From Branchiostoma floridae (taxonomy: Eukaryota > Chordata > Leptocardii > Amphioxiformes > Branchiostomatidae), in the NCBI RefSeq assembly GCF_000003815.2, contig NC_049991.1:9804506-9868505 (forward strand): a stretch of 64,000 nt of DNA, in the 5' to 3' direction. The translations under genes were made by a program, and so were the position numbers. Shown piece by piece: positions 1-34,049 of this stretch; positions within the stretch are counted from its first letter, which is position 1, and the number at the start of each line of letters is the position of its first letter. The notes beneath the pieces were generated by a model. The model saw only the letters and a program-made list of their open reading frames with translations, ran no database searches and was not told where the DNA came from.

Positions 1-1852
1 AATTCTGTCCTACTACTTGCTACATATATTTGCCCAAAGGGTGGCTGTTTTTTACAGCTACAGTAACCTTCAAGTCGGTACCTTTGCAACAGCCGCCTGA
101 TTTACATTATTCAAACCAAACCGTAATTGTTTGGAGAAGAACAAGAAGAAGATAAGAAGAAGAAGAAATGGAGCAAAAAAGGGACCGTACTTCTTTAGCC
201 ACCGTAAACTTCACAATTTGACGGCTCATACTATGAAGATGACTGTTTACGATAGGTCATCACTCCTGACTTTTTAGTTACCCAGTTGATATGGCTCCTG
301 TCCGTTTGACTAAGCATTCTTGTCCATACCCTGCATTTAGCCGTTACTGCATTTGGAGAATGCTGCTAATAGCTTGCTGGCCTCGGAATGCCTCGCGACA
401 GCTAAGAAATCATCAACAACTCGAAGTTTATTTTCATTGCTTGTTGCTGCACCAATAGAGGATGATATTTTTGCATGATGCATGACACAAATTCTCTGAT
501 ATCTAGCAACGTGGTAAATAATTAGAAAGCTTACCACGGATAGCTTGAGTGTTATATTGAATGTTTGTTCACCCAACTCTCTTCTCAAGAAGGGGAGGGT
601 ATTGGAGTCCCCGGCACTCCCGGGTACACTTTAGATGTAACGTTACACTCTTTCATTGAAGTGCCTACTAGATATTCCACGTTCAAATACTTCATTCCCG
701 TTTTGCGATTGAATACTCAAGCAGAACTCATCTTGGCATTTCCCCATGTGACAACAGGCCTCTTAAGCATGTTACAAGTGCAACATATGGTACAAAAGAA
801 AGTATTAACATAGTTATTCTGTGTTTGTGATGTATTGATTGGGCGTATGTAAGTGTGTTGAGGCGGCTAACATGGAAAATTGGGGGATGATAAGCTACGC
901 GAGCGCTAGATAAGGTGCACACAAATTGCCAGCCGCTGGCGAGGAACTTGATTGGCTGAATCTTATATATTATGCTAATCAGCACGCAGCAACAGATGGT
1001 TAGCCGGTAAATTGATTTGTGACTGCGCCTTAATGACGTCATCCACTCCTTTGTGTGTACACGGTAAACCAACAAATGAAGTTGACATGTGGGTCTCGCG
1101 GCACGTACACGTGAGGTATAGAAATTACAGTCATGAGTCCTAAAAGCTAGAGGATGATGCGTGGACGCCAGAACTTTACACTTACACAAACAACCCACCG
1201 AAACATTGGGTCGCCAGGTAGCATACGATGTAAGTCACTCAACCGTAGTTCTTGTGCATTTGAATTAACTACAAAACCCCGTAACTGTCAAACCGTATCA
1301 CATTTAATGAATAGCTGAGGCTGTGAGACTGAAAACCCGCATATCAGCGCAACCCCGTGTTTCTCTCGTGTCCCCGCGCAAATTACCAGGGTGTGTTTAA
1401 TGGTAAACCTGCGCGAGATGGATTGAAATGTAATTGCACCTGGCAACGGTTTGCTCTCGGCTGAACCCATCCGTCAAGCTGCATCGTTCAAGCCCAGTGA
1501 TTTTGAATACATGTGAAATAATGCACGTTAGAATCGTCAGGTTATCGTTCCAGTACACGTTCTGAGAGTGAGCCCTGGTAGTGACCTTTCATTCAGAAGC
1601 ACAGCAACAGGTATCAAGTAGTAGGAGATATATTAACAGTTGTTCACTGGATGTCGCGCTGAGCAATGGCATTGAAAAACATTGAAAATATGGTTATCAC
1701 TAACAGTTAATTACAGACTTAAAGCCGATGCCAAAATGTCGCTTTATTTCAGCAGAGTTGAACCGGTCGCAGTTTGGTGCGCCGTCCACATCGAGAAACA
1801 TATTGAATCTTTGACTGTTCAAGCACATTGGCAGTGGGAAACTCCACAACCA
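1..1852. other. Intergenic, no supported gene
   Basis: Only short scattered ORFs are present. None shows a recognisable domain, repeated splice-phase logic or codon bias, and they overlap on both strands. Near 140-170 there is a purine-rich GAAGAA stretch. I see no RNA gene here. Confidence 0.6.
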
Positions 1853-2059
1853 CACTCTCCAAGCAGAGGTTAGGCTCCGGCTGTTTTTTTAACGTTTTTT
1901 TAGTCGTTTTTATCGGGCTTTCTATTTTTTTATATCTTGCTGTGTCAAAACCTAACTGGCTGGCGTACTTCAAGAAAAATGACAAAATAGACTGCCCGAT
2001 AACAACGGCTAAAAAAACCGTTAAAAAACAGCCGGAGCCTAACCTCTGCTTGGAGAGTA
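1853..2059. mobile_element. Fold-back MITE, family A copy 1
   Basis: This 207-bp element is nearly palindromic. Its terminal inverted repeats begin CACTCTCCAAGCAGAGGTT on the left and end with the complement on the right, and the homology runs well inward (GGCTCCGGCTG...CAGCCGGAGCC). It is flanked by an exact 8-bp direct repeat CACAACCA at 1845-1852 and 2060-2067. Three relatives lie at 15629, 29272 and 34596. There is no internal coding region, so it is a non-autonomous DNA transposon. The 8-9 bp target duplication suggests the MULE or hAT superfamily, but the termini do not decide it. The overlapping ORFs on both strands are artefacts of the palindrome. Confidence 0.88.
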
Positions 2060-3950
2060 CACAACCAGTCTTGCTTGTGTGGTTTTTTTTTTCATATCTG
2101 AAAGCGATTTTGTGTGCGAAGTCGACACAGGTGGTTGATTTGTGACGTATTGTGTTAATGTTAGATGGCCGGTTTGGGTCGCCAATCCACCAACTCAGCT
2201 CGAAGGTCAAGATTCTTTTTTTGTTTCAATCTTTTTGACCTTTTGCAGATCTATCTGACGTGGGTCTCTAACGTTACCACATGTGACATGGGTTTTGGGT
2301 AAAGTATCGGATTTAGTTGGAAAATCGTCTAATGGCATTCAACACACACATAAGCACTAAGTAATAATAAGTATGGATAACATTTGGCGTTAGTGCCCAG
2401 CATCATATTTAATAAAGACCACTAAAGATGACCACGCTGACTGTGTGGTTGAGATATAGTATTCGGTAGTAAAATAGCGGCCTCACATGTGTCAGGGCAA
2501 TGTTTAATGGTGGATAATGGGTAAAGAAAATCGTTGCGCGCTGGTCTGTTTTCTCGTCAGTTGGGAACGCCCGGCCAATGGCCATGAGACGTACTGTTAT
2601 GTATGAAGTAGTGGAGCGGGTACAAGACCTGACTGGACTGCGCCAAATTGCGCAAGGATTCTCAATTTGTCGCCTGAAAGTGATACTTTATAGTTTTCGA
2701 AAGACTTTATTCCATTCAGAAAATGTCGAAATTCATATATCTTACAATATCACCACTGCGGTCATGGGTCGTGAGTGAGTAAGTGATCTTATCTAAGTTG
2801 CACGCCAAGTATCAGAAGTTAACATATGCATCATTTTATCACTGCAAATCTGCATTATTAATAACTTTGATGTATGATTTATAGTGGCACCACCGATTTG
2901 ATTTCCAGCTCATTTGGGTTACATTTGCATTAATGCATCAGGTCGATCTCAAAATAAAATTGGCATGAATTCGCAAAGTTGGCAAAATTTGGCACGTTGC
3001 ACCATAAAAACCATATAGGCCACACCACGTTATCTTGCATACGACTGTGATGTAATGAGCTGTAAAAAGAGACAGATTACATATCCTTCAATTTGCAGAC
3101 ATCTTGATTAATAAGGATATATGTTCAAACGACGGGAGTTAATTGACTCATTGCGTCAACCTTGTCTTGACATTGCTTTACTTTGGTTCCTATTGGACTA
3201 TCGAAAATTGTGTTCATCTCTTTTGCATATCAATTCAATGGTAGGTATAAAATTAGCTCTTCGACGAGGTTTCTCCGGTGTCACTATAGTGGACGCTGTC
3301 TGAAACGTCTGACCGTTTCCCAACTCGTAGCCAATAACCGTTCTTTTACTCATGTTTTTACCTGTATGTCTAACCTTCATGAATAAAACAACTTCGCTGG
3401 ACTAAATAAGGAGCATGAAAGAGAAAACTAAAATAGGACGCGAACGAATGTTTGATTTTCATGTCCAACTTAAGGATTGCTCTTCCAACAAGGCAGCAAT
3501 CGATTGCTGGAACCCTTACGTATAACTAGAGAAAAGTACAAACCAGGACAAGATTTCACTCAGGGTTACTTATCGGATTGATTATGTGAACACGAAGAGC
3601 TGGAGGGGTAAAACCGTACTGTAACGTTACCCGCCACGCATACCGATTCCGCACCAGGTGACAATAACAACCCTGAAAGCGCTGCGTGTGCGGCATCCAG
3701 TGACATAAGTTCACCCGTAACACGTCTGTAAGTGCAAACACTGACCCAGGTCCCGGCTTTCTTGAAACATGCATTTTGCCTGAAGTCACAGATGATGAAC
3801 TTTGCATGGCTTCCTGTTTGGAAATCTGTAGAGCCACCAGACTGGATGACAGGGGAATGGAAAACACATCAGAGGGCTGACTTTTCGATTGATTTGGTAG
3901 ATCTTTGGTTGGTTTAAATGGCGTAGGTGAACTGCTGTAGATTTTTGCTG
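2060..3950. other. Intergenic, no supported gene
   Basis: AT-rich sequence with short, unconvincing ORFs on both strands. I found no domain, RNA gene or clear repeat. Confidence 0.55.
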
Positions 3951-4053
3951 TGTCGTAGTATTGTCTGCCGTAATGTTGTGGTGTCGTAATGTTGTCTGCC
4001 GTAATGTTGCGGTGTCGTAATATTGTCTGCCGTAATTTTTTGGTGTCGTAATG
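3951..4053. repeat. 31-bp minisatellite, about 3.3 copies
   Basis: Three consecutive 31-bp units, each with the core TGTCGTAATGTTGTCTGCCG and ending TTGYGG or TTTTGG, plus a partial fourth. The units differ at a few positions. The short minus-strand ORFs across them come from the periodicity. Confidence 0.85.
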
Positions 4054-6910
4054 TATGTATGGCTGGTAGTGGTTGGCCAGAAAGACGTTCTATGCAATGG
4101 CAGTGTTGCACAGTACTAGGAATAACTGTTCTTAAAATTATCTTGTTTTGTATGAATGCACGAATGAATTATGAAAGGAGAAAGACCACTCCCATAGACG
4201 CAGGTGCCTCAGGATAATTTCGTCAATTTTAGAAAATAGAAAAGGCTGAAAGGGCAAAAATCGTATTATATTTTGTAAACTAGATAATGTCTTTTTGAGG
4301 CCGGCTTTACTTTATCATACATACGTAATACCAGGCTGATATCCCAATCAGTCAACGGGTATATTGCGGATCTCTGTAATTCAGCTACACATGAAATATG
4401 GGGTCCCTTCATTTATCAAACCTGATTTCAAGACAGAAGTGCAATAAAGTTAAGATCATCATTAATCAACGAACATTAAGAAGATTTTCGCTGATCCCAA
4501 TGTGCAAATAAGATTTGATTAAAACAGAAATATACCTGGCTTGTACGCGCCGATATGCTGACAGGATGTAGGTATCTTTATACAATCTTATATTTTGTGT
4601 GGGTATGCTACATGACATGTATGTGAGTATTAACATGCATTAATATAAAAAACATGTTACCCAGCAAATATATTAACAAAACTACAAATAAAAAAATAAC
4701 TATGAATAGTATAGGTAGTGTAGATTCAGTTGTCAAATTAATTCATACATCATTTTCATTGTTAAGTATAACCACGCTGTATATCACTAGTATCTTTAGG
4801 GTATTGTTCGTAATATAAAGTTATCACAATTGATAAGAGGTCTTTTTTTGCGAAATCCAGCTCGAGGCCTGATTGCAAGTAACATAAAAAGACCCGACAA
4901 ACATAATAGCATGTTTTTACTCGAAAATGTTGTCTCTAAAGTTTCAAACTATTTGGTTCTACTTCTATGTGCATGTATTCAGCAGGGTCTACACTAAATT
5001 ACTCAACGTCAAATCTAATTACCCATTATCCGCCATGGGTTCCCCCCATTCTCTGTCGAGATTCTCTTCTTCTGAACTTGAACAGATGAAATATTTGAGT
5101 CGTTACAGGCAAACATAATGTTCTAATTCACGATGAAGCTAGCGATATACACTCAGCACAAAAGGTTTGGAATATCAACTTCAGTAGGGTAATTTCAGCA
5201 CTTTTGTGACCCCCTGACGTAAGCAGACCTGTTGCTTGTTAGATAACTTTACAATCATAAGAAACTCTAGTCAAAAGTGCTAAGATATACTTCTATGTTC
5301 TGCATACCAAAGATTACATGAAAAAGGATTGATTGAATCATTGACACCCGCGACCGTACTAATCGGACGATACAGTGACACAAGCAGGGAAATTGGGCCA
5401 CATTATTTGTGTGACCCACTCACGTTAGCAGGCCTGGTGCTTGTTCCTTGAGTTTACAATGATAATGAGTTTGATAACATTGGAAAGGAAATCACACACG
5501 CTTTCTATTGATACATTGAAAATTTGAAATTGATGCAGAAACAACGGAAATATGATGTAAAAAACGTTTTGTGCCGAGTTTAGTTGAACACCAACATATG
5601 GTGTATAGGTGGCGTTTTCACAGCCCTTGGGGCACAAAGAAGGAAACCCGCATATGTTCGGCAAAATCAAACACCACAACCGCATCTTGTAATATTGGTG
5701 AGACTTTGCCAATATAACTCACGCTGTGGTCATACGGAGAAAGCCGCTATAAAAGGTACCAATTAGCCTGCAGCATGTTAGAATGCACTCTTCTGTAGTC
5801 ATCAATATGTACACGCTTGGGGTGGAAATAAGAGCTTTCATGTTCCAACCCTAGAATAACGTTACATCTTGGCAGATATTCGGTTGCAGACATTCGTTCA
5901 TTACTCTTTAATGTGATATTCAGTCGGCGTCTTGGTGGGTACCCTGTCTTGGAAACTTGCCCAGACTTGTATACATCCTTGGCCTTCTGGAGCTCTTGTG
6001 GTTACGCGACAAAACTACGGCTTATCCGAAAACCCTCCCGATAGACGAAGTTTATCCTAAAGCCATCTTAAAGTCAGCACTGAAGTTCAATTTCACAGGC
6101 AAAACCTTGGCATACACAGTGGATCACGCCAACGGCGTTATATGCTATACACATGGCTGGTTAGAGTCTTAACGTCTTGTGCCTCAAAACTCGACGATGG
6201 AACAACTTCACACTGTTATATGTACTGGCTAAACCCTCGGCTCCTTGTTATTTTCCATGAAAACTCTGATATAAAAATATAATGTAAATTTGTCATTCCC
6301 TTGTTCAGTTGTCCTCCTTAGAACTTTTTTAAATGCCCCTGCAGTTCCAGAGCAACCTGCTAAGGAGATCCAAAACATGTACACCATGTATTCCCTGCGT
6401 TACAAGTTATCTGCCACCAAAAAATAAAGACTACAGCGCATCCAGGTCACAAGGTATAAAAAACGGAATTTCTGTTGCAGTACCAAGTCACATACAAGGG
6501 AGCCCAAAATTGACCTTTACCTTCGGCTTCCTAACACCTACCCACATACCAAATATCATCGTAATTTATCCAGAGGTTTATGAGTTAATGCTGACCACAA
6601 ATATCCGGAAAAACAAACAGACACACAAACACACAGACAGACACACCAGAAAACATTTTTCATGGAGATAAATATCTCTCGGCTCACCAACTACGCTCCC
6701 CTTTATGCGGTAAAATATTTTTCGTAGTGCTGCAACCGTTGTGCGCTGAAACCGGAAGTGACGCGAGTATACGTGACTCCTGACCTTTCTGCTTGCTTCT
6801 TGGAATATGTTACTGCGCAGACTCCAACACTTCGTGTGATTCGCTCGGGCAAGGAGGCTCGGGCTACCACCGGTGTACTACATCTTTAATAGAGAGCATC
6901 TTTCATTTAA
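4054..6910. other. Intergenic with a diverged direct repeat
   Basis: No gene can be supported. A diverged direct repeat of about 60 bp occurs at 5209-5272 and 5413-5475. Both copies start GACCC, share AGCAG.CCTG.TGCTTGTT, and then TTTACAAT.ATAA. They probably derive from an old local duplication or a repeat family. An ORF at 5957-6172 has a hydrophobic start but no recognisable family. Confidence 0.5.
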
Positions 6911-9120
6911 CTACAGGCCAGGTGAGACACTGTACATGTCAGTAAGGTGTGTTATCTTTTCATGCAGGCCAAGTGAGACGCTGTACAGGTGTGTAAAGTG
7001 CATTTCCATTGTCTACAAGTACAGCCCAGGTCAGACCCTGTAACGTTACATGTGTGTATTAAAGGGTTTTTCCAGCGTCTACAGGCCAGGTAAGACACTG
7101 TAGAGGTAGCTAAGGTGTGTTTGAACAGTGTTTCCATTGTCTACAGGCCAGGTGAGACTCTGTACAGGTGTGTAAGGTGTGTTTCCATTGTCTACAGGCC
7201 AGGTGAGACTCTGTACAGGCGTGTAAGGTGTGTTTCAATTGTCTACAGGCCAGGTGAGACCCTGTACAGGTGTGTAACTTACTGTAAGGTGTGTTTCCAT
7301 AGTCTACAGGCCAGGTGAACCCGTACAAGGGTGTAAGGTGTGTTTCAATAGTCTACAGGCCAGGTGAGACTCTGTACAGGTAACTAAGGTGTGTTTCCAT
7401 AGTCTACAGGCCAGGTAAGACACTGTAGAGGTAGCTAAGGTGTTTCTCCATTGTCTATGGGCCAGGTAACACACTGTAGAGGTAGCTAAGGTGTGTTTCC
7501 ATAGTCTACGGGCCAGGTGATACCCTGTACAGGTGTGTAAGGTGTGTTTCAATTGTCTACAGGCCAGGTGAACCCGTACAAGTGTGTAAGGTGTGTTTCA
7601 ATAGTCTACAGGCCAGGTGAAACTCTGTACAGGTAACTAAGGCGTGTTTCCATAGTCTACAGGCCAGGTAAGACACTGTAGAGNNNNNNNNNNNNNNNNN
7701 NNNNNNNNNNNNNNNNNNNNNNNNNNNNNNNNNNNNNNNNNNNNNNNNNNNNNNNNNNNNNNNNNNNNNNNNNNNNNNNNNNNNNNNNNNNNNNNNNNNN
7801 NNNNNNNNNNNNNNNNNNNNNNNNNNNNNNNNNNNNNNNNNNNNNNNNNNNNNNNNNNNNNNNNNNNNNNNNNNNNNNNNNNNNNNNNNNNNNNNNNNNN
7901 NNNNNNNNNNNNNNNNNNNNNNNNNNNNNNNNNNNNNNNNNNNNNNNNNNNNNNNNNNNNNNNNNNNNNNNNNNNNNNNNNNNNNNNNNNNNNNNNNNNN
8001 NNNNNNNNNNNNNNNNNNNNNNNNNNNNNNNNNNNNNNNNNNNNNNNNNNNNNNNNNNNNNNNNNNNNNNNNNNNNNNNNNNNNNNNNNNNNNNNNNNNN
8101 NNNNNNNNNNNNNNNNNNNNNNNNNNNNNNNNNNNACAGGTGAGTAAGGTGCGTTTCCTTTGGCGACACACCAGGTAAGACACCGTACAGGTATTAGGTG
8201 TGTTTCCTTTACGACACACCAGTCAAGACACCGTACAGGTAAATTAGGTGTGTTTCCTTTGACGACACACCAGGTAAAACACCGTACAGGTGAGTAAGGT
8301 AAGTTTTATTTGACTGTAGACCAGGTAGGACATCTACAGGTGAGTAAGATGTGTTTCCTTTGGCGACACACCAGGTAAGACACCGTATAGGTGAGTAAGG
8401 TGAGTTTTATTTGACAATAGACCAGGTAGGACATCTACAGGTGAGTAAGGTGCGTTTCCTTTGGCGACACACCAGGTAAGATACCGTATAGGTGAGTAAG
8501 GTGAGTTTTATTTGACAATAGACCAGGTAAGACACCGTATAGGTGAGTAAGGTGTGTTTCTTTGACTACAGACCAGGTAAGACACCGTACAGGTGAGTAT
8601 GGTGTGTTTTCTTTGACTATGAAACAGGTAAGACACTATACAGGTGAGTAAGGTGTGTTTTGTTGACTACAGATTAGGTAAGACACCGTACAGGTGAGTA
8701 AGGTGCCTTTGCTTTGCCTATAGACCATGTATGGCATTAAAAAGGTGAGTATGGTGTCTTTCCTTTGCCTATACACCAGATAAGGCATTATACAGGTGAG
8801 CAAGGTGTTTTGGCTTTGCCTATAGACCAGATAGGGCATTATACAGGTGAGTAAGGTGCCTTTCCTTTGCCTATAAACCAGATAGGGCATTATACAGGCA
8901 AGTAAGGTGTCTTTCCTTTGCATATAAACCAGATAGGACATTATACAGGCAAGTAAGGTGCCTTTCCTTTGCCTATAAAGCATATAGGGCATTATACAGG
9001 TGAGTGAGGTGCCCTTCCTTTGCCTATAGATCTGATAGGGAAATACACAGGTGAGTACAGTCTCATAGTGTCTTTCCTTTGCCTATAGACCAGATTAGGC
9101 ATTATGCAGGTGAGTATGGT
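6911..9120 (+). repeat. 51-bp minisatellite array, plus-orientation arm
   Basis: A tandem array of a 51-bp unit. Three sub-families follow in blocks: type A (about 6911-7683, core TCTACAGGCCAGGTGAGAC), type B (about 8136-8690, GACACACCAGGTAAGACACC) and type C (about 8690-9120, CCTATAGACCAGATAGGGC). Almost every unit carries a donor-like CAGGTGAGTAAGGTG and a pyrimidine-rich TTTCCTTTG..YAYAG acceptor-like tract. Because 51 is divisible by three, the array makes long open frames with a 17-residue period; these are not evidence of a protein. A 452-N gap interrupts it, so its true length is unknown. Confidence 0.93.
7684..8135. other. Assembly gap (452 N)
   Basis: A run of N inside the minisatellite array, probably where tandem repeats could not be resolved. 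Confidence 0.99.
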
Positions 9121-9129
9121 CATTTGGAA

Positions 9130-10868
9130 AGACACCATAGTAACTGTACTCACCTGTATGATGCCTAATCTGTTTTATAGGCAAAGGAAGATATCTTAGT
9201 GACCATACTCACCTGAATAATGCCTTACCTGGTCTATAGGCAGAGGAAGGGCACCTTACTCACCTTTATAATGCCCTATCTGCCATATAGGCAAAGGAAA
9301 GACACCACAGTGATCATATTCACCTGTATAATACCCTATCTGGTCTATAGGCAAAGGAAAGACACCATACTTACCTGTATAATGCCCCATCTGGACTATA
9401 ATCAAAGAAGAGACATCTTACTCACCTGTATAATGCCCAATCTGGTCTATAGGCAAAGGAAAGACATCTTACTTGCCTGTATAATGCCCTATATGCTCTA
9501 TAGTCAAAGGAAAGACACCATAGGGACCGTACTCACCTGTGTAATGCCCTATTTGGTCTATAATCAAAGGAAGGGCACCTTACTCACCTGTATAATGCCC
9601 TAAATGGTCTATAGGCAAAGGAAAGACATGTTTCTCACCTGTATAATGCCCTACATGGTCTATAGGCAAAGGAAAGGCACCTTACTCACCTGTATAATGC
9701 CCTATCTGGTGTATAGGCAAAAGAAAGACACCTTACTTAACTGTATAATGCCCTATGTGGTCTATAGGCAAAGGAAAGGCACCCTATTCACCTGTATAAT
9801 GCCCTATCTGGTCAATAGGCAAAGGAAAGGCACCTTACTCACCTGTATAATGCCCTATCTGGTCTATAGGCAAAGGAAAGACACCTCACTCACCTGTATA
9901 ATGCCTTATCTGGTCTATAGGGCAATGAAAGAAACCTTACTCACATGTATAATGCCCTATCTGGTATAATAGGCAAATGAAAGACACCTTACTCACATGT
10001 ATAATGCCCTATCTGGTATATAGGCAAAGGCAAAACACCTTACTCACCTGTATAATGCCTTATCTGGTCTATAGGCAAATGAAAGACACCTTACTCACAT
10101 GTATAATGCCCTATCTGGTCTATAGGCAAAGGCAAAACACCTTACTCACCTGTATGATGCCTTATCTGGTCTATAGGCAAAGGAAAGACACCGTACTCAC
10201 CTGTATAATGCCTACATGGTCTATAGTCAAAGGAAAGGCACCTTACTCACCTGTACGGTGTCTTACCTGGTCCATAGTCAAATGAAACTCACCTTACTCA
10301 CCTGTGCGGTGTCTTACCTAGTCTGTAGTCAAAGAAACACATGTTACTCACCTGTACAGTGTCTTACCAGTTTCATAGTCAAAGGAAACACACCTTACTC
10401 ACCTGTACTGTGTCTTACCCGGTGTGTTGTCGAAGGAAACACACCTTACACACCTGTAGATGTCTTACCTGGTCTATAGTCAAATGAAACTCACCTTACT
10501 CACCTGTACGGTGTTTTACCTGGTGTGTCGTCAAAGGATACACACCTTATTTACCTGTAAGGTGTCTTGACTGGTGTGTTGTTAAAAGAAACACACCTTA
10601 ATTACCTGTACGGTGTCTTGACTGGTGTGTCGTTAAAGGAAACACACCTTAATTACCTGTACGGTGTCTTACCTGGTGTGTCGTCAAAGGAAAGACACCG
10701 TACTTACCTGTTGAATGCCCTATCTGGTCTATAGGCAAAGGAAAGACACCATACTTACCTGTATAATTCCCCATCTGAACCATAATCAAAGAAAAGACAT
10801 CTTACTCACCTGTATAATGCCCTACATGGTCTATAGGCAAAGGAAAGACACCTTACTCACCTGTATAA
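9130..10868 (-). repeat. 51-bp minisatellite array, inverted arm
   Basis: The same 51-bp unit continues here in reverse complement (ACTCACCTGTATAATGCCCT...GGTCTATAGGCAAAGGAAAG). The order is type C (about 9150-10240), type B (about 10240-10690), then a few type C units to 10868. It therefore partly mirrors the left arm. The switch point lies near 9130, where AGGCATTATGCAGGTGAG faces CTCACCTGTATGATGCCT across about 25 bp. The repeated MPYLVYRQRK-type translations are products of the array. Confidence 0.93.
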
Positions 10869-12678
10869 TAGTGGAAATAATTAATCATTATGTTACTTCA
10901 TGAATATGAGGCTAAGACTATTGGTAAGTTTCTACACTTTTCTCCATCCACACTCCAGGTGTTCTTCTAGCTCATTGTTACAATCTTCAATTACCAGTGT
11001 CATATTTGGACAAATTGACAAAATGCTATTGTTGACAAACTTTTTGAGTCGTGAGAGTAATATCACCTGCCAACACTTGTTATAGTGAACTATTATATTT
11101 TATACTGTTCCAAGGTGGACATTGGATTGTCCCTGATCAATTTTTGTGAAATACTCCTGTTGGGTTGATCCCATATCTTTGTCTTATTTCATTCTTCTCA
11201 AAATAATTTGTCAGTCGGTTTGATTTTGACAGGCTTTTTTTTACATTGCAGGTACCAGTGACAACATCTATGCAAGATGGAAACCTTCATTAAAAACTTC
11301 CTGCATTTCTATTACCCAATTTGTTGATATGATATTCCTAGCTTGTCTTGAAAGTTTGGATTTTTGTAGCCTATATACATATATATATATCGCAAAGTAT
11401 CTAAAACACCACTGTACCANNNNNNNNNNNNNNNNNNNNNNNNNNNNNNNNNNNNNNNNNNNNNNNNNNNNNNNNNNNNNNNNNNNNNNNNNNNNNNNNN
11501 NNNNNNNNNNNNNNNNNNNTTTTGTGCGCGTATTTCGATCCATTCCCCTATTTCACAAGTTTTTTTTTTTTTCAAAAGTCCATAAGCTCAATCATGGGAT
11601 CGTATTGGGAATATGCGGTAACGTTATATTAGTTTTACATTCACAGATGTTTGAAAACAGTCATTTAAAACTACACGTGTATTACAAAGACAAATGAACG
11701 AGGAATTGTCTATGTTCTTGCTTTATTTATCTTAATTCAGTGACTTACCAATGAACAGGCGGAACAAAATTACCGTTAGTTTAGAAATACAAAATAAAGA
11801 TATACTGGTCAGTAAATAACTTATATAAATTAACTTACTTATTAATAAGTAATATTTATTCCCTGTCCATTACTAACACTGTAATGTCTAAACATATACC
11901 ATTTCATTCATTCAGACTTTGGATTAAGCTGATAAACCAAGCACTGGTTTGTACTGCTTTCCGGGACAGGGTGACAAACAAAGGAAAGTACTAGTACTTC
12001 ATAAAGAGTAACGTTAACGTAAATATACATTGTAACGAGTCGCTTACAACTTCTGTATTAGCTCTGCATTTACGCATTATTATAGGAAAACTATTTTACA
12101 ATGCATATCTTTGAGGTATAAGATGACATTGTAATAACTGAGGACTAGTGCGGAGGATTACGTCTTCTGGCTTACTTTATTTGTTAGTAACACCGACTGA
12201 AGCTAGCGGGTATCGATAATTTACATGGTCGTAAGTTTGATGTGGATACAATGCTAAGTTACAACCCCAAGGTGTCTTTCAGTACGGCATATACCATGGT
12301 CTAGGTTACTATATGGAATACAATGATAAAAAGTAAATACCAAAAACCTTTAGTGGCATTTACCTTTAGAGTTGCTGCACGCTTTGACACATACATGTAT
12401 AACTTTAACTACCTTAACAAATACAACTATAAACTAGGGTTAACTACAAGCGACCCTCACCGTAACTGTGCTACTGATACGCATATTCTTATTCAGACTT
12501 TTGTAACCAATCAGCTCTCAATACCTTTTGATCACTTCATTGTCTGTCTTGAAGAGACGATGGGTCACTTACATGACTTATCATGACTCCAAATATGGTC
12601 ATACCTAATCAATACCTAATTACATCACAGATCATGACCGATAGAATACTTCAATTGGCACATATTATGTCTTGGCGT
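10869..12678. other. Intergenic with a 100-N gap
   Basis: AT-rich DNA, with N at 11420-11519 (a round-number gap, so its real size is unknown). I found no gene. TTTATT at about 12176-12181, read on the minus strand as AATAAA, could be a poly(A) signal for the death receptor that ends at 12679, but it is 500 bp away. Confidence 0.5.
11420..11519. other. Assembly gap (100 N)
   Basis: Exactly 100 N, the usual placeholder for a gap of unknown size. Confidence 0.99.
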
Positions 12679-15600
12679 CTAAACCATCTCGGGCCACTGC
12701 ATTTTTCCAACCTGACGGGCGATAATGGGGTGGAAGGACCGGCGGAGTCCCTGCTGAAGACCCTCAAGGGAGGCTTTGTTACCGTTCATTTGCTTCCATT
12801 CTAGTGAGAGAAGAAAAATTGACATTTTTATGAAATCTACGTTGAATACATGTGCGCAATTGGAAATGTGAATCTATCATCGGATAAGCTTTGAAAACCT
12901 ATTTTGTTGAAATACACAACATTGCATACACCATACATTTTTGCATATGTTTGAAATTACTTCTATTATGAGAATTAATAGAATGATTATTCCTTTTGAA
13001 TACTGTCTGTATGATTACATATGGTTTCCTGTTTATTCATATGCAACATAAAAATTTCTTACTCAGGAGCATCTGAAAAGCCATTTCTTTAACGTCCGGA
13101 CGATGCCTTTCGTAGATGCTGTCAAGGTCGGCCTGTGTCGGGAGGTTACCGGGCAGATGTCTTGCGAGACGCGACCAGCGACTGCCGACATGGTCAGCCA
13201 CATAGTTGAATACTTGTCTCAAGTCAACGTCTGTGCGGGTATAAAACATGTAACAATGGTTGATAAAAAGGGTAAAATCACAAAGATTATCTTTAGAAAT
13301 CGATAACTGTAATATTGTCTGAAATATGCAACCAAAGTTTATTTGTGTTAAACGTCAAACAGAAAACCGATGCGTAAATATTGAACATGTTGTTGACGAA
13401 CTATTACGAACTTTTGTTGATGTTGCTTTCCGTCTCCTTATTTGGAGTAGATTGGTCTTTGCAGCATGCCACGATGACAACAGCGGCCACAGCAATGCCC
13501 GCCAGACTAGCAAGACCGCCAGCAAGAGGTACAACGAATGATTCACTCTCCGCTAGGTCATAGGACAGCGTGTCATTGGCTAATGATGAGTCTAAGTCCC
13601 ATTTTGTTGTGTCTGAAATAAACAATAACAGAAGCATTAAGGGCCTGGTTCAAAACGATAGATATATTTCGTAAGTAGCTTGTCAGTGATACGGTTTCAT
13701 AATGTTTTGTCATTTGAACATCTACGCGTTACATGCTTGATGGCTTGATGGCAAAACAAAGAGAAATGTATCCAGAAAGCCATTTAGATTGCCATATGGC
13801 AAACTTGTAATCTTGATTTTTTTTTTTTAAATAAATGTTTGGAAACGTACTTCCTGTACTACTAGTGCTGGTAGTAGTCTTCTGTGTTGTTTCATTGTGG
13901 TCAGGATTTCGCAGTGATGTAGCATTGCCATGTTTGGAGTCTGTTGTACCTGGAATTGACAAAAATACATCTGGTGAGTACAAATGTATAGGGTTTTCTT
14001 TCATGTGTACCGCATCGCATTGAGTTGTAAAGGTAACTACTTCTATTCAAACATCTATCGGGTATGAAAAGAGAGGGTATAATCACAATTTGATTGAGGG
14101 AAATACCTGTGCCTGTTTTAACAGGCGAACACATCGCAGGTCCGTTTGACCCTCGGTACACCTGTCTTGTTCCCGGCTTGCAGTCACAGCGCCGCGGTGC
14201 GGTTGGAGAACACTCCTGCAGGGTGACCAGGTTACGGTCATCATCACAGGTATCGCCGCAGCTGAGACACCTGTCACCGTTGTTGTAATACCGCATGTAG
14301 AAATTGTGGGGACACTGTTCACATATCGTGCCATGTTCAGTGTCACAGTGCCTGGTGATTGGATAGAATAGTAGTCAAATTTGAAACAACTAGACATAAG
14401 TATGATAAGTATCACTTAATGTAACAGGAATGGTAAACGTTAACAAATAGGCCATGTTATCAAAATGTTTGACATGAAAAATGGCTTACTTGACAAGAAA
14501 ATGACCTGGTTCGCACAGATCACATGTCAGCGACTGTTGTCCATTGTATTCTAACGGGTAGACGCCAGGCATGGACCGGTATATCGGGGGTGAACGATGT
14601 TGCGCAATAGCGATGACGTCATCTCCCGACGATCGTGGCGAAGTCTGGAATTTGAGAAAGAAGCAAGTTTTACGTTTACGTTAAAAGGGCAGCGGGTTGT
14701 GTGATAAATTTCTCTAGATTGGACTTTGCTGACATCTATTATATGTAAAGCAAACAACGAATTGATAGGTACAAACATTGTGCAAGCTATAGTGTGAGGG
14801 TTTGTCGTGTTTTAAACTAATTGTATTGATTCTTTACGTAAACATAAGCTGACGAGAAGACTGGAGCATTTCCATCAGTATATGTATCCTATACCTTGGG
14901 GAATTTTTAGAGTGCTGCAAGCTAGAAGTAGGTACGGTCTTACATTGTGTAAGTGTCATAGTCATGTGATCCGCAAGACATCTATACTGTACACAATAGC
15001 AGGCATGGGTAAACTCAATTTGTGGCAGATCATGGACTTTGGACTCTAGAAATCACCTGTTGGCGCAAGTCCAGACACGCTCACAAATTCTAGATCATTC
15101 TACTAATTGTGGCGCAAATGTTTCACAAAATATAAAAGAGACACTTTACTGGAAAGCTAGATTGCATCCACACACGCGTACGCACACACACACGCACACA
15201 CACACACACGCATACCATCAAACTTTCAGTCCCATTAGTCGAAATATTTGCTCCACTAAACTGTAGAAACAACACTACATCAGAAACACAGTGGATTTTT
15301 AAACCCACGTCACAAAGTCATCGGATTTTGAATCAGTTTGTATTGATACCTTCCACCAGGCCTAACAAGTCTCTAAGCGAAATTTCACACACAAGACAAA
15401 GCCATGGCAAACCGCACATACCATAAATAGTCATATGAATAGATTGTAAGAAAATGGTGTGACCACACAAAACACCATAAATGTCGGAAATACAAAATTG
15501 TCCCTACAGAAATATTTCCATTCCGCTTCATCTTTAACACTTAACATCATTAAGAATCTTATCAGAGTCAATGGCAACATTGGCTGCAAATGTAGATGTG

Positions 15601-16242
15601 GATTTTGTGCATTTAGTTCACTTAGAATTACTCTCCAAGCAGAGGTTAGGCTTCGGCTGTTTTTTTTTAACCTTTTAGGCGGTTTTATCAGGTTTCTATT
15701 TTGTACTGTAGTTTTCTTGATGTGTCGCGGCCAAAGACAATCAAGAAAACAATGCAAAATAGAAACCAGATAAAAACGCCTAAAAACGTAAAAAAAAGCC
15801 TAAGCGTAACCTCTGCTTGGAGAGTAACCTAGAATACCATACAGTTTTGCTGATTCAACAAAGCAGCAAAACAAACAACAACGTGTGCAGGTGAAGATGT
15901 TAATTATCTTATTTAATCATCCACAAAAATCATTCCATTTAGAACGCAACTTTTCAAACCCAGGAATTAAGGTACGCAATCAGTTCCCACCATACTTGTT
16001 TCATTCCAGAGATCAAATTTAAGATCACTTGTGACGCAGCTTAAATGGAGCCATATATACTTTGTAAGCTTTGTATATAAACCACCACGGGAAACACACT
16101 GTTCGTTATTACGTATACGTAGGGCCCTACCATAAATTTAAAAAAAAAAGGACTTGGAGCTTACCTTGATGTTCTCTTTTGCGGCCACCCATTGCGATCC
16201 AAGTTGTAGCGTAACGGCAACAAGGATCCAAAATGTAGACAT
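12679..16242 (-). CDS. TNF-receptor-superfamily death receptor
   Basis: A type I membrane receptor of 355 aa, assembled from seven exons with matching phases: 16242-16165, 14644-14490, 14351-14107, 13949-13851, 13612-13412, 13230-13063, 12800-12679. Exon 1 encodes a signal peptide (residues 1 to about 21). Residues 67-152 hold 12 cysteines in TNFR spacing (CDLCEPGHFL at the start), about two and a half cysteine-rich modules. A Thr/Ser-rich stalk follows (about 160-190). Residues about 218-242 are a transmembrane helix, and about 261-352 a Death domain split over two exons (GSRWSRLARHLPG, then WKQMNGNKASLEGL). By family knowledge it would bind a TNF-like ligand and recruit Death-domain adaptors. 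The exon 5 donor (GTTCGT) is weak. I cannot assign orthology to a particular vertebrate receptor. Confidence 0.9.
15169..15210. repeat. CA-rich microsatellite
   Basis: An imperfect CA/CG dinucleotide run in intron 1 of the death-receptor gene. The ORFs across it are low complexity. Confidence 0.85.
15629..15826. mobile_element. Fold-back MITE, family A copy 2
   Basis: This 198-bp near-palindrome has termini TACTCTCCAAGCAGAGGTTA and their complement. The flanking duplication is 9 bp with one mismatch, ACTTAGAAT (15620-15628) and ACCTAGAAT (15827-15835). The arms share the interior with copy 1 (GGCTTCGGCTG, AACCTTTTAGGC). It sits in intron 1 of the death-receptor gene. Confidence 0.88.
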
Positions 16243-17624: not shown

Positions 17625-20600
17625 TCAGGCTGGCGTAACTTCCATCCACATCCCGCCCTTGGCACACATGACGATCAACATCTCTTTCTGCGCAGGGCGT
17701 GTCGGGTCGACTTCAAAGACAAATCTGTCAAAACAAAATGCAGAGGGAGTGTCATTTAGGCCTACGTCACCCCATACCCGGGGCCCGGCTGGGCTGTTTG
17801 CGGAAACGAAAGATTAAAGTTTTTGCGTTTTGTGTTTGCGTTTTGTGGTTTTGTTGTCTTTTATATCGTTTCCCCAAACTGCCAGGCCCCTTTGTGAAAA
17901 TGTGACGTTAGCCTTATATAAAATTACCTTTTTTTTTCAGTTGTACCGAAGCATTGTTTGTAACGATTTACATGTAATACGTCTAGTGACTATAGTCATA
18001 ACCTTAGCATATATTACACAGCTGCTCGAATAGGTCTACAAAGAAACAAACACGTCAGGGCACTCGCTGTTGCTTCATGTTTGAGGAGATACATATTCCT
18101 GGCATATGCATTTGTTAATTCCTTTATAAAGACTGAAAACGGTAATTCCCTTACTTGTGTATCAGCCTTGCAAGCAGCACCTTCGCTTCATTCATCGCAA
18201 AGTTCTGACCGATGCAGTTCCTGAACAGGGATGACAATGTGATGTATTAATTGGATATGGCTCGATCATATCATGACAAAGACGGCTAACCTACAAACTA
18301 GAGTTTCTTCAATCCATGCAGATAAAGAAGGACTGACCTCTGTCCTGCAGAAAACGGCAAGAAGGCGTGAGAGTCTCTGTCTTTCATGCGCTCAGGGCGG
18401 AAACGACTCGGATCAAACTCCTGTAACGTAACAGGTCATGTCATCAAACTATACCAAAATAAGATTTATAACATAATAACGATTAAAAACCTGTTGAAGA
18501 CTAGACATTTGGGGTAAGTTATGGTGACAATCCAAAAGTTAATATCGAACAACATACTAAATAGGAAACTAGGGGAGGGATGTGGAAATACGTATGACAG
18601 TTTGTCATGTCTGCCAGAGAATGTTTGACCTTAAGAGCTTAAGCTTAAACAATAGGTCCCGATTTTCTGAGTCTATATGAGCAAGTATCGGTGAAATAGA
18701 TAGTTTCATCAGGTTTGTAAGCCACTGAATAGAAAAATCCGGTGTTCGTCTGTCGCCTTCCTCGAGATTGCACTGCATTAACTACCTATTCACATGTATG
18801 TATATGCTAAGTAAGTACTTAACGCTTGGAAACGTATGTGCCAGCAGCGACACCTATCTGTCTTGCGTTATAAAAGCAGTCAGAATTACCCATCAAAAGA
18901 AGGTGAAAGATCTAGAGGGTCACCAGAAATGTCAGTATTGAATAAACGCTTGTGTACAAACAACGTTGAGCTAATATAAATCTCCACATTTGATAAATTG
19001 CAGAGACTCGAATGGACCAATTAAAGTCCATACCATATGATCGGGTCCCCAGACAGCCGGGTTATGGTGCAGTCCGTACAGGTGTATGCCTATGTCAAAC
19101 CCCTTTGGCACAGTCACACCGTCAATCACAGTGTCCTCCAGCGTGGCGCGCGTGATCATAGGAACAGGAGTGTGTAGCCGCATGGCTTCTTTCAGACACA
19201 TGGTCAGGTAGGGGAGTTTGTGTAGGTCTGCCCTGAAATGACATTTGGCAAAAAATATTTACAGCTGTTCAAGCTAAGAGCTAACAAGAAGCATTAAATC
19301 CTCTTGCATATTACAATGAAATTCTGTTGTTTATTTCAACTTTGAACCCAGTAGCTCATTTTTTTTTTCGTAAAAGGTTCGTGACTCACGGCAGATAACC
19401 ACCATTCATATAATTTGCCTCGTGTAAGTTAGTCACATATTGAAGTGAATCATACTGTTTTTCTTCCGACTGAAAGTGCAACGTTCTATCATAACCTCCG
19501 TCACAAGCTGCTTAGGCCCTTGTAGAGCCAAGTACAAACGGTGCCAAATTCCCTTGCTGTTTCAGTATTAGCAACGAGGGTTGATTAAATCGCCTTGGTA
19601 TAAGACTATATTTCTATAAGGAGCTAGCCTTTCAACGTGCGCGAGGTAACTTTTGGAACATGGGACCCCATTTTATGTCTCTTTCAAAAGAAGGGTGACT
19701 GGGTGTGGCCCCAACCGAGATGCCCTTTCCAGGATTGAACCGATATCTTCCAGTTACTAATGGTTTTATTGAGTATTGAGTAAATATAATTCACATTGTC
19801 ACGTCAGTGGCAACACATATACATAGTCATGCGTTGAATTGCGATACGGACATTACATACAAGTAGTTAAAAGTCATCAATAAGAGCAACATCAAGAATA
19901 AAAGATCTTTACATAATTAAATTTTACTGTAAAAGTTAACTTTCAATTTACAAATAAACTTACTAATTCTAAAAACATGTGGCATTACGCACAATATCGT
20001 CCAAGTAAAAGATAATTGTACGACTACGTGTTGAGCATACGTGTCATATACGGGACAGCGCTGTTTCTACATCGTTCTGTTCTACAATGAACCAAGTCCA
20101 AGTTGTTTGAGGAGCGAGTCTATCTGCCACTAATATGGCTCTGTCTGTCCGGTGGCAGGAGATGACGGTACTGGTTGGAATTGAGAAGAGATTTGGCAAA
20201 CTTCAGTGCAGTTACCAACTAATTGGAACCAGGAGCTCAACTGTGAGGCTACTATACCAGCTGAGCTACAGGGACATTGCTTTACAATGACACCTTACCA
20301 TTGAATCGTGTCATCCTCCCTCCCGGACAGCAGATGATTCACCTCTTCCCGCACCTTGTCCTGATGATGGGGATGTTGGGCAAGGGAGTACAGGGTCCAG
20401 GAAAGGGCACTTGCTGTCGTCTCATGCCCTGATAAAACGATCCTTCCAGCGTAAATCTCTTTACAATCATCCTTAGTATTTAAAGTTACAAGCTAAGAGT
20501 ATGTCAGTAACAACTCTGCAATGTAACTATATTGTATGCATCTTGAACATTGTATGGAACTTTATATTTCATGACTTTCCTGGATATTTGCGCCGATATT

Positions 20601-22584
20601 GCCGTAGTTTCTCGCCATTACGGGTTAAAATACGAGATATTATTTACAAGAATTGCTATGAAGCATTGTTATAGAAAATGAACAAACAAACAAACAAACA
20701 AGCTGTAAGGTCACCAGCAAACAAGAAGGTGTCCACCTCTTCCCTGATCTCCAGATCCGTCAGCCCCGTCCCGTCCTCGTGCCGTGCGGACAGCAGGATG
20801 TCGATGAAGTCCAGCCTGGTGTTCTGGCCTGGACGTCCGTTCCGGTTCTAGACACAAACAAATGTTTACATTTATTTGCTTAGCTCCGTGAAGGAGGTTC
20901 ACCTCCTAGGGCGTATTGCGATTGATTGTATCTGCGTGATGTCAGCTATAACCCAAGATATTTTTCATGCATTTGTAAGCGCTTTGGAATTTTGTCTGTC
21001 AGTACCATCCCATGTGTTCACATCTTTGAAAGAGAAATGTCGAGTTCGAAGCGGGGCATCACCAAATGCCAACGTTATGTTTGATGATTCTAATCAACAT
21101 AGAGTGTACATTTAGATCTGGAGCATTGTGACATTCGCTTTGTGCAGATAAGGCTTAGGTCCCAATTGCACCGGTGCCCGTCAGGGATGTAGCCCCGGCC
21201 GGGCTCCGGAGCCACAAATTTGCCTTGGTGGCCGTGGACTGCCGGATACCGGGGGTATACGTACCCCTCGGTGTTCCCTACAGGTATGTCACGGTGCCTA
21301 TTTGTTTCTGTGTCCCGGGCTCAGTTTAAGTCTGACTTAGATTCAACCCGGTGCCTGGCCGGGCCCCAAAATACCACCGGAGCCGCAAGGTGTCCCACGG
21401 GGCCACGTAGGGATCACGCCCGAATCTGGATCATCACCAGAAGACTACTTACTTGTTGCTGTCTCCTCTTCGTAATGATGGATCCTGCTTTGTCCTGGAT
21501 GGATTTACACAAGCGAATGTATTCTCGCCCACTGGGAAGCCGGTTGTACGCGGAAACCGATAGCCAATATATCGGGTTGCTACACAAACAACATGACGAA
21601 AAACATTGGAAGTCTTCTAATGTCTGTATTCAGTGTTCAGTTGCGATTGCAGATCCACAAATGGTCTGGCATGTCGTTTTAGAACGTGAGTACGCATCAG
21701 CCTGTGATTGGATGATTGACTGATGATGATTAAAACACTCAACATCAAATTGTACTTACAACTGCATCTCGACAAACAGGAGTTTAAGCTTCCGAATCGC
21801 TGCGACGTACTCATTCTTGGTCCTGATGAGGGAAGAAATAAGTAAAGGGCCGGGTGGTATGTGAACCTAGTCCTCGACAAGAATTTTAGCAGATTACTTC
21901 GTCAAACCCTATAAAAAATCGATAAATGATGTTGCTTTTAAGACTGACCTTAGACTACGTACTGACGAAAACCATACGGATATTATGTGTCGTTTTCGTT
22001 AATCATAATCCCTTTTTGATTTATATCTGACTTACTCATCTGACATCTGTCCCCCTGAAAAAGCACACTGTAGGATGATTTCCAGGGTACACATGCTGGC
22101 CTCTTGGAACATCTCAAAAGCATGACGGATTTTAGCAGTCTCTGATAGCTTGCTCTGTGGAAGCAAGGAAAGGTATGTCTGTCCTTATAACAACGGCAAG
22201 TTTATTTATATTCTTCAAATGTGCAAGTTTGAGTGACTTCTATATAAGAAGTTACGTTGAATAAATCTATAGCCACAGTGAATGTTTTCTTAAGTTAACA
22301 GAATGAAGGCAGCAAACATGATACTGCTCTAGATCATCATAATTGGCCACGACAATTATTTCGAATTCAAAGAAAAAAATATCAATATTTACTATCATTT
22401 CCGTGGCTTCCTTGTTGTAGACACTGACGTACTGTTTGAGGATATCGAAGTGAAAGGCAGGCGTGAGGAGTCGGCGGTGAACCCTCCACTGGTCTCCGTC
22501 ACTCAGGAACAAGCCGTTACCTGGCAACGCGAGGAAATACAGTCATACTTAATCCATGTATCAGTACGTGTGCGTGTGTTTGTG

Positions 22585-30371: not shown

Positions 30372-30491
30372 TGATTCATAATTCAGCTGTGATGTCAAAA
30401 GAGGAACTACAACACTAACTAAATCAGTAACTTGACTAGCAACATATAACGTCAACGCTACAGACTCCAGGGTTGAGAAAAAAACAACAAC

Positions 30492-33400: not shown

Positions 33401-34049
33401 GCCAAACTTTCTATTTCCTTGTGCCAGGAGAGCTCCTGTACTGTACAGCACCTGGAGGTATCCAGTCTTTGCGTTGCCGTAGAACCAGTGCATTGGTGGA
33501 TGTCAACCTTGTATACCCTCCCTCAAATCCTACAGGTGGGATAGGGAAGAATAGCTCCAGAGCATTTTTACCGCAATGCCATGTTTCTTGCATGATTTAC
33601 CATTTTTGTGTTGAAAATGAAAGGAAGCCTCTAGTTTTGTATCTTATTTTTTACAAAAGGTCAGGTATTCTTTCAAAATATTCCTTAATCCAAATCTTGG
33701 TATTTCCCAACAAGAAATGGCTTCACCCATTCATCTCATTTCAGATCAACACATCAGCAATGAGTGCGTACAGCTTGTGTCCAAAAAGTTGTCCAGAACA
33801 AATTGGAGGCCCCTTGGACATGTCCTTGGTTTGGAGGAAGGAGACATTGAAGCAATAGAGGTGCGACATAGCGGGGACCTGAATGAGATGAAATACCAGA
33901 TGTTGCAATGTTGGCAAAGGAAGGCGGGACAGTCTGCAACAATGGCAGCCCTAATATCAGCTCTCAGAAACACCACCGTGCAAGAAAATGGAATTGCAGA
34001 TGAACTGGACAAAAATGTCTGCCCAGTGAAGAAACCAGTTGTGCCCTGA
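30492..34049 (+). CDS. LRR-ROC-COR-Death protein (ROCO family, MFHAS1-like)
   Basis: A 936-aa signalling protein in four coding exons: 30492-32814, 33031-33105, 33428-33535, 33745-34049, all phase 1 junctions. Residues about 18-235 are leucine-rich repeats (LxxLxLSxNxLxxLP spacing, about nine). Residues about 249-440 are a ROC GTPase: P-loop GETCAGKTS (257-265), switch II DFGGHE (304-309), and THIDK (364-368) in place of NKxD. A COR region follows (to about 700). The last exon (836-936) is a Death domain (NWRPLGHVLGLEEGDIEAIE). LRR-ROC-COR matches the vertebrate MFHAS1 subfamily, which I recall as lacking a C-terminal Death domain; ROC-COR-Death also occurs in DAPK1. A 5' UTR acceptor is at 30371. 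A role in apoptosis or innate signalling is inferred from the domains. Confidence 0.92.

What the first reader, a model, noticed from the sequence alone, without database searches (positions are those of the whole stretch)
6911..10868. Array of about 70 units that each mimic a micro-exon with both splice sites
Each 51-bp type C unit can be read as TTTCCTTTGCCTATAG / 21-nt 'exon' / GTGAGTAAGGTGCC. The donor is near-perfect and the acceptor has a pyrimidine tract and AG, in almost every unit. The 21-nt exon and the 30-nt 'intron' are both multiples of three. It could have arisen by amplification of a real exon-intron boundary and could act as a splice-factor sponge or cryptic-exon source if transcribed. 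I recall reports of amphioxus minisatellites spanning exon-intron boundaries, but cannot verify them here.
Basis: partly seen in the sequence, partly recalled or inferred. Interest (0 to 1): 0.75.

Follow-up and report, generated by a model that had tools for sequence, protein, structure and literature searches.

The report
Jumping gene built from splice-like repeats
The "array of mini-exons" is the double-armed core of a mobile DNA element (a Mutator-type, foldback-like transposon) found at several places in this lancelet-like genome; its repeats do resemble RNA splicing signals, but nothing here shows that they are used.

Summary
The 51-bp units are real (66 alignable) and their splice-donor resemblance exceeds chance (post hoc). 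"Both sites in almost every unit" is overstated: 35 of 66 units have an AG acceptor plus the following GT.

The array is not local: an own-genome search gave 280 matches on many contigs. Copies share [terminal inverted repeat][leader][A-B-C units] facing [C-B-CCC units][right part][terminal inverted repeat]. Nine near-identical left ends exist; 6 of the 7 loci with both a left and a right end show a perfect 9-bp target-site duplication. One copy interrupts a coding exon. A related 10.76-kb element with a 9-bp duplication carries the same units and a MULE transposase domain.

Verdict: a non-autonomous, foldback-like Mutator-superfamily transposon. A transcript entering from either side meets donor-like sites before the opposite arm. 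Splicing use is untested, and signs of selection on the sites are mixed. Known kind, new variant.

The parts
6700..6708 (.). CCTTTATGC, left copy of the presumed 9-bp target-site duplication
   Evidence: Sits immediately outside GGTAAAATATT. It occurs once in the window; a right copy is not visible because the right end lies in the 100-N gap.
6709..6786 (+). left terminal inverted repeat (GGTAAAATATTTTTCGTAGTGCTGCAACCG...)
   Evidence: 75-78% identical to right ends of complete copies; sharp boundary in the alignment of copies, except L009, which lacks the tip; 9 near-identical left ends in the genome
6787..6892 (+). leader between the terminal repeat and the array
   Evidence: 97-100% in the F1 copies (C11 in two pieces), 89% in the transposase-bearing C7 element, no other match in the own-genome search
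6893..7683 (+). type A units, plus sense: acceptor-like ...CTACAG, inner donor-like GCCAG|GTRAGA, weak outer donor
7684..8135 (.). assembly gap of 452 N inside the left arm
8136..8693 (+). type B units, left arm; both donor-like sites, acceptor AG often lost
8694..9120 (+). type C units, left arm; outer donor CAG|GTGAGT, acceptor-like TTTGCCTATAG
9121..9130 (.). centre of the inversion, almost no spacer
   Evidence: strand switch of units; the arms are colinear: 975 aligned bases, 88.9% identical, 8136-9116 against 10711-9419
9131..10868 (-). right arm, minus sense: C (9131-10250), B (10251-10707), CCC (10708-10868)
   Evidence: same overall order in the other F1 copies readable on both arms
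10869..11419 (+). right unique part of the element, as far as the gap
   Evidence: 97.9-98.7% identical in seven fetched loci over window 10861-11419 or parts of it
11234..11251 (+). acceptor-like site CTTTTTTTTACATTGCAG| (exon side begins at 11252)
   Evidence: identical in the 3 F1 and 4 F2 sequences aligned; L012 has one T more. Highest sense acceptor score in L014 (11.7), third highest in L013.
11420..11519 (.). 100-N gap that hides the rest of the right part and the right terminal repeat (about 1.5 kb in L014)

Best explanation
The array is the double-armed core of a non-autonomous, foldback-like DNA transposon of the Mutator (MULE) superfamily, here called F1. SHOWN: dispersed near-identical copies, terminal inverted repeats, 9-bp target-site duplications, insertion into a coding exon, and a shared leader and units with a larger element that has terminal repeats, a 9-bp duplication and a MULE transposase domain. 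INFERRED: a MULE transposase acting in trans on the terminal repeats moves it by cut-and-paste. The array grew by unequal exchange or slippage and was once duplicated in inverted orientation in the F1 ancestor. The splice-like signals travel as part of the unit: a transcript entering from either side meets sense-oriented donor-like sites before the reverse-complement arm, and could fold into a long hairpin. Their most likely effect is passive, as occasional cryptic splice sites in host transcripts. Whether the unit began as an exon-intron boundary of an element gene is open.
For: Dispersal: 280 matches to a 61-bp query, with identical 61-mers on C2, C3, C13 (own) and C19. Same overall unit order in the F1 copies readable on both arms, L009, L010, L012, L013, L015 and the gapped L014 (L010, L013 and L015 also have a few B units within the right-arm C block). 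Left boundary. Right end and terminal repeats. TSDs: C3 TCTGTCTCC, C7 CTACGCCGG, C10 CATCTCTCG, C11 GTGAACTGG, C12 AGGCCAGGT, C2 outer pair CACAGCGGA. Nine left ends at 98-100% over at least 156 of 162 bases. Low divergence: 0-1.7% among 8 left parts, 0.4-1.8% among 6 right parts (L015 left and L010 right were left out because of an insert and Ns). Insertion in a GT47 exon: the frame is open across the flanks; the Pfam match of a 98-residue piece runs profile 49-112 across the join (29.4 bits, below the cut-off of 33.4), against 80-291 and 88.2 bits for the right flank alone. MULE link: F2 terminal repeats at C7:8212823 (+) and 8223579 (-) with CCGCTCTCT on both sides enclose ten type A units and a PF10551 match of 29.0 bits against a cut-off of 27.6. 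A second element on C9 with related subterminal sequence has GGGCCAAGT on both sides (read) and PF10551 at 35.3 bits. Two further families with the same units have 9-bp TSDs: F2 in L021 and L022, F3 in L023 and L027.
Against: In the window itself only the left end is visible; the right end is in a gap. C19 lacks the left tip, and the inner C2 left end (CTGACGGGA) has no partner. The C2 outer pair is 22.7 kb apart and includes the inner left end and N gaps. The C12 copy is only 4.3 kb between its ends and was not read whole. The tips of F1 and F2 differ, and no transposase-bearing element with F1's own tips was found. PF10551 is near its cut-off in the C7 element, and PF21056 (ZSWIM1-3 RNaseH-like) scores higher (51.6 bits), so that copy could be decayed or domesticated. 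Most of the C7 and C9 elements was not read. Classical foldbacks have the tandem repeats inside long terminal repeats; in F1 the terminal repeats are short and the inverted arrays are internal.
Confidence: 0.93

Rival explanations
1. A 'mirage': a local minisatellite made by tandem duplication of a real exon-intron boundary of a gene at this place, as reported for amphioxus Adh, globin, TnC and PGBD5 genes.
For: Mirages are reported in lancelets. The GT47 gene around the L014 insertion shows three copies of an acceptor/exon-start unit. The unit looks like acceptor-exon-donor.
Against: The array sits in a dispersed element with terminal repeats and TSDs. Both edges are element sequence; the nearest gene-like feature found is a TNFR-like death-domain gene whose stop codon is about 1.8 kb away. 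No single-copy match for the leader.
Confidence: 0.04
2. The splice-site field is a selected device of the transposon: donor sites on the strand read from either end recruit U1, or pair with the downstream acceptor, so that host or element transcripts survive the insertion.
For: In L013, 46 strong sense donors lie in element positions 214-3220 and 35 antisense donors in 3263-5189, against 7 and 4 per strand in 52 kb of window. The acceptor after the array is identical in 3 F1 and 4 F2 sequences. The donor 9-mer is the same in all four group consensuses and its columns rank 4, 10, 2 and 8 of 51; for window B+C pooled they rank 6 of 51.
Against: Within the window classes, donor columns rank 51 (A), 22 (B) and 34 (C) of 51, and acceptor columns 20, 51 and 36; pooled B+C acceptor 45. 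Acceptor columns across groups rank 44, 26, 33 and 51. Acceptors scoring above 9 are common in ordinary window sequence (40 per strand in 52 kb), and 3 and 10 per strand score above 12.5. No RNA data. The C9 MULE element shows no units near its left end.
Confidence: 0.12
3. The 51-bp array is protein coding, 17 codons per unit.
For: Long open frames: 391 aa in L043, 289 aa in L040, 404 aa in L010.
Against: Variability shows no codon-phase pattern in F1, F2, F3 or L019 (permutation p 0.88, 0.62, 0.53, 0.22). Several units are 49, 50, 52 or 59-62 bp. A homogenised 51-bp unit with one open frame stays open by itself.
Confidence: 0.02
4. An assembly artefact: two haplotype contigs of a simple array joined head to head.
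For: Gaps lie inside and beside the feature.
Against: The same inverted order occurs at other places with different flanks, including the gap-free loci L012, L013 and L015, two of which have exact TSDs.
Confidence: 0.01

Closest known systems
Tetris, foldback transposon of Drosophila virilis (PMC4079207; passages seen)
   Same: Non-autonomous, inverted arms with internal tandem repeats of variable number, no conserved ORFs, 8-10 bp TSD, assigned to Mutator by its authors on TSD length and foldback structure
   Different: 220-bp repeats inside long terminal repeats; F1 has 51-bp repeats in an internal inverted pair, short terminal repeats and splice-like units
Tm1, Mutator/Foldback family of root-knot nematodes (PMC3169594; passages seen)
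   Same: Tandem repeats within inverted repeats, mostly 9-bp TSD, asymmetric tips outside the inverted repeat as in F3 (CGCAT/GGGAG), some members encode a Phantom-like Mutator transposase
   Different: 13-15 bp repeats, other sequence, nematode
Rehavkus (described in PMC6446971; passages seen)
   Same: 9-bp TSD, terminal repeats of 26-400 bp, a minisatellite before the 3' terminal repeat; the C7 element has its array between the transposase pieces and the terminal repeat on the transposase's 3' side
   Different: PHD finger not found in the pieces scanned; stated there to be restricted to insects and annelids; no inverted array pair in the passages seen
Amphioxus mirages (PMC3087553, PMC3902484; passages seen)
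   Same: Tandem repeats with splice-like signals in lancelets
   Different: Mirages are local, at a real exon boundary of one gene; this one is mobile
Human IFI6 (G1P3) minisatellite, repeat units used as splice donors (passage and reference title in PMC4526556; the original paper not seen)
   Same: Tandem repeats that can serve as splice donors
   Different: 12-nt units by recall, single gene, not mobile

Membership tests
Mutator superfamily (MULE) | 8-11 bp target-site duplication (PMC6446971) | tested here: met
   9 bp, perfect at 6 of the 7 F1 loci with a left and a right end; C19 has lost its left tip
Mutator superfamily (MULE) | terminal inverted repeats | tested here: met
   about 80-90 bp, 75-78% between the two ends
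Mutator superfamily (MULE) | MULE transposase in the element or in an autonomous relative | tested here: met
   none seen in F1 itself; PF10551 in the related C7 and C9 elements with terminal repeats and TSD. An autonomous partner with F1's own tips was not found.
Foldback elements | long inverted arms of tandem repeats with variable copy number | tested here: met
   inverted arms in F1 and F3; 67 to 112 readable units in the window, L009, L010, L012, L013, L015
Foldback elements | the tandem repeats lie inside the terminal inverted repeats | tested here: inconclusive
   nearly so in F3 (inverted arms of 1.6-2 kb in L023, L025-L027 that include array); not in F1, where leader and right part are unlike. 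F1 is therefore called foldback-like.
Rehavkus | PHD finger in the transposase | tested here: inconclusive
   no PHD hit in the four pieces of L054 and one of L056 scanned; most of both elements was not read
Mirage (exon-intron minisatellite) | a real exon of the host gene at the edge of the array | tested here: not met
   both edges are transposon sequence
Functional micro-exon array or splice-factor sponge | transcription and use or binding of the sites | not testable with these tools
   no RNA data available

The most novel reading that the evidence does not exclude
A transposon that carries an orientation-independent splice-donor field: inverted arrays put dozens of near-consensus donors ahead of the opposite arm in any transcript that enters the element from either side, a conserved acceptor follows on one strand, and the two arms fold together. 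This would let host pre-mRNAs tolerate insertions, or protect element transcripts through U1 binding, and would explain why the same unit is shared by families with different ends (F1, F2, F3).
Probability: 0.12. Interest if true: 0.85.

Novelty: new variant of a known kind. Interest (0 to 1): 0.5.

Why it matters
It turns an apparent array of micro-exons into a datable mobile element. It shows MULE transposase domains inside elements with terminal repeats and TSDs in a lancelet-like genome, where PMC6446971 states that its authors could not detect MULE transposases for Branchiostoma floridae (the species here is my inference). It also offers a clean system for asking whether repeats that look like splice donors help a transposon live inside genes: near-identical copies, one of them inside a GT47 coding exon. 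If the donors are used, the elements would be a ready source of new introns and exons in a genome type already known for mirages.

Tried and rejected
Local mirage: rejected for this locus. Coding array: no codon-phase signal. Known RNA families and tRNAs: none at threshold. Viral and prokaryote collections: 0 exact matches to a 29-mer of the unit (the tool warns that records near the window's own genome may be left out). Array as part of the neighbouring TNFR-like gene: its last exon ends near 12680 and I saw no exon beyond it. Promoter reading of 6740-6790 (ETS-like motif, recalled): the motif lies in both terminal repeats, so it belongs to the element. Coding reading of the exon after 11252: open at first in F2 but a stop at codon 14 in F1; dropped by eye. 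L015 leader as a spliced cDNA: rejected, because the 'intron' in the window copy is a TTAA-flanked insertion and the leader insert is a repeat with a CAA tail. Selection on splice sites: mixed. My first acceptor column was off by one and was corrected. Papers: the listings of ten searches showed no paper that I recognised as reporting this element; the original Adh minisatellite paper was not held (one search was a wrong DOI). The splice matrices, the minimum intron length and the U1 ideas are recalled.
Full report
OBSERVATION. The window (64 kb, in the own genome at contig C13:9804506-9868505 of a 513-Mb assembly in 431 contigs) holds 51-bp tandem repeats from about 6893 to 10868. Sixty-six units could be aligned (14 A, 20 B, 32 C); one partial unit beside the 452-N gap and one 30-bp edge unit were left out. 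Units point + up to 9120 and - from 9131. The arms are colinear: 975 aligned bases at 88.9% identity, with a unit-order score reached by 0 of 1000 full shuffles and 3 of 1000 within-class shuffles. As RNA, 8136-10711 would fold at -1630 kcal/mol against -715 to -761 for six shuffles, with 896 pairs between the arms.

SPLICE RESEMBLANCE. The B and C consensus donor CAG|GTGAGT is near the maximum of a recalled matrix. Shuffled units reach both the donor and the acceptor score in 1 (A), 0 (B) and 0 (C) of 4000 cases. Most A and B units have a second, inner donor. Only 35 of 66 units have both AG and the following GT. Signs of selection are mixed. In the window the donor columns rank 51, 22 and 34 of 51 circular shifts for A, B and C (6 for B+C pooled), and the acceptor columns 20, 51 and 36 (45 pooled). 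Across 961 units of the other loci (F1 516, F2 146, F3 224, L019 75) the donor ranks 4, 10, 2 and 8 and the acceptor 44, 26, 33 and 51. Thus the donor is somewhat favoured when classes are pooled and the acceptor is not.

A DISPERSED ELEMENT. A 61-bp query found 280 matches in the own genome, with identical copies on C2, C3, C13 (own) and C19 (not all rows are listed, and counts are lower bounds). By reading the listed rows I count 23 places; 22 lie in or beside the elements or arrays described here, and C2:2328977 could not be fetched. Twenty stretches were fetched. F1 copies share the window's overall order A-B-C facing C-B-CCC, a left end GGTAAAATATTTTTCGTAG, a right part that continues past the window's second gap, and an inverted right end. 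Copies with both ends on one locus are 6.2-8.1 kb (L010, L013, L014, L015); the C12 copy is 4.3 kb between its ends and was not read whole. Nine left ends match at 98-100%, and copies differ by 0-1.8% in unique parts (8 left parts, 6 right parts), so transposition looks recent.

TARGET-SITE DUPLICATIONS. Perfect 9-bp duplications flank C3, C7, C10, C11, C12 and the outer pair on C2 (22.7 kb apart, with an inner left end and gaps between), that is 6 of the 7 loci with a left and a right end. C19 has lost its left tip, the inner left end on C2 is unmatched, and the window's right end is hidden. The C7:17.29-Mb copy sits in a coding exon of an Exostosin GT47 gene: the frame runs on across the joined flanks, and the Pfam match spans the join (short piece, 29.4 bits, below the cut-off of 33.4; right flank alone 88.2 bits).

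FAMILIES AND TRANSPOSASE. The same units occur in F2 (tips GGTGGCGGATAGATCC; exact TSD in L021 and L022; L017 and L020 are joined to F2 by their right part) and F3 (inverted arms of 1.6-2 kb at 94-98% in L023 and L025-L027; L024 88% and L028 in two blocks; exact TSD in L023 and L027, and by reading in L025; none in L026; 8 of 9 in L028). For F3, 40 of 342 candidates were scored, and by my count 12 inverted pairs lie among them. PF10551 (MULE) has 27 matches in the genome, 27 of them over its cut-off. One lies inside an F2-tipped element, C7:8212823-8223579, with CCGCTCTCT on both sides and ten A units just inside the left end. Another lies inside a 16.3-kb element on C9 with GGGCCAAGT on both sides, whose subterminal sequence is 79% like F1; no units were seen near its left end. 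F1 itself shows no transposase-like ORF in the lists (only some ORFs were scanned). Hence F1 is filed as a non-autonomous Mutator-superfamily element with foldback-like architecture. MULE TSDs of 8-11 bp, the 9-bp Rehavkus TSD with a minisatellite, and foldback membership in Mutator come from passages of PMC6446971, PMC3169594 and PMC4079207.

HOW IT WORKS. Inferred: transposase in trans cuts at the terminal repeats and inserts with a 9-bp stagger; the array changes length by unequal exchange (67 to 112 readable units in the window, L009, L010, L012, L013, L015). In L013 (7217 bases, no gap) strong donors number 46 on the sense strand (positions 214-3220) and 35 on the antisense strand (3263-5189), against 7 and 4 per strand in 52 kb of window; in the gapped L014 they number 41 and 9. 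An acceptor of score 11.7 follows the array and is identical in the 3 F1 and 4 F2 sequences compared, but acceptors of this strength are not rare in the window. A transcript from either side therefore meets sense donors before the opposite arm. Whether this is used is unknown. The default is a passive by-product; a selected splice or U1 function is the bold reading, at about 0.12.

AGAINST MY READING.

Noticed in passing
L014, about 1768-2010 on the reverse-complemented locus (C7:17.29 Mb): A mirage-like structure: three copies of the intron-acceptor/exon-start unit of an Exostosin GT47 gene, 81 and 91 bp apart, just upstream of the transposon insertion.
   Followed up: partly
window 38557-39388, minus strand; L015 about 7256-7462; L038 about 1660-1780: A short repeat with a CAA tail (SINE-like); in the window it is split by a roughly 660-bp insert flanked by TTAA; in L015 it sits in the F1 leader between CTACC repeats; the L038 copy was seen by eye.
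   Followed up: partly
window 1854-2059 and 15630-15826; L025 9524-9733: A palindromic repeat of about 210 bp, 74-77% between copies, probably a MITE.
   Followed up: no
G000, 27 places: PF10551 (MULE) matches over the cut-off, two of them in frames of more than 1000 aa, although PMC6446971 states that no MULE transposase could be detected for B. floridae.
   Followed up: partly
L022 4184-5380: A reverse transcriptase (PF00078) inserted between array blocks of an F2 copy.
   Followed up: no
L043 4-1176 and L040 310-1176, minus strand: Arrays of A units with open frames of 391 and 289 aa; on C12 a right-part match lies on the other strand beside the subterminal match, an arrangement I cannot explain.
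   Followed up: no
C2:33990879-34013559: Two F1 left ends and one right end; the outer left end pairs with the right end by TSD, suggesting a tandem rearrangement or an assembly problem.
   Followed up: no
L019 2333-6810: A single-orientation array of 78 units between inverted 56-bp ends, with no TSD found.
   Followed up: partly
window 12680-14550 (-), 18974-22542 (-), 30477-34046 (+), 40669-64000 (+): A TNFR-like gene with a death domain (both Pfam matches below their cut-offs), a cytochrome P450, LRR-Roc-COR and Death domains, and DDT/PHD/bromodomain exons that look like BPTF (name recalled).
   Followed up: no
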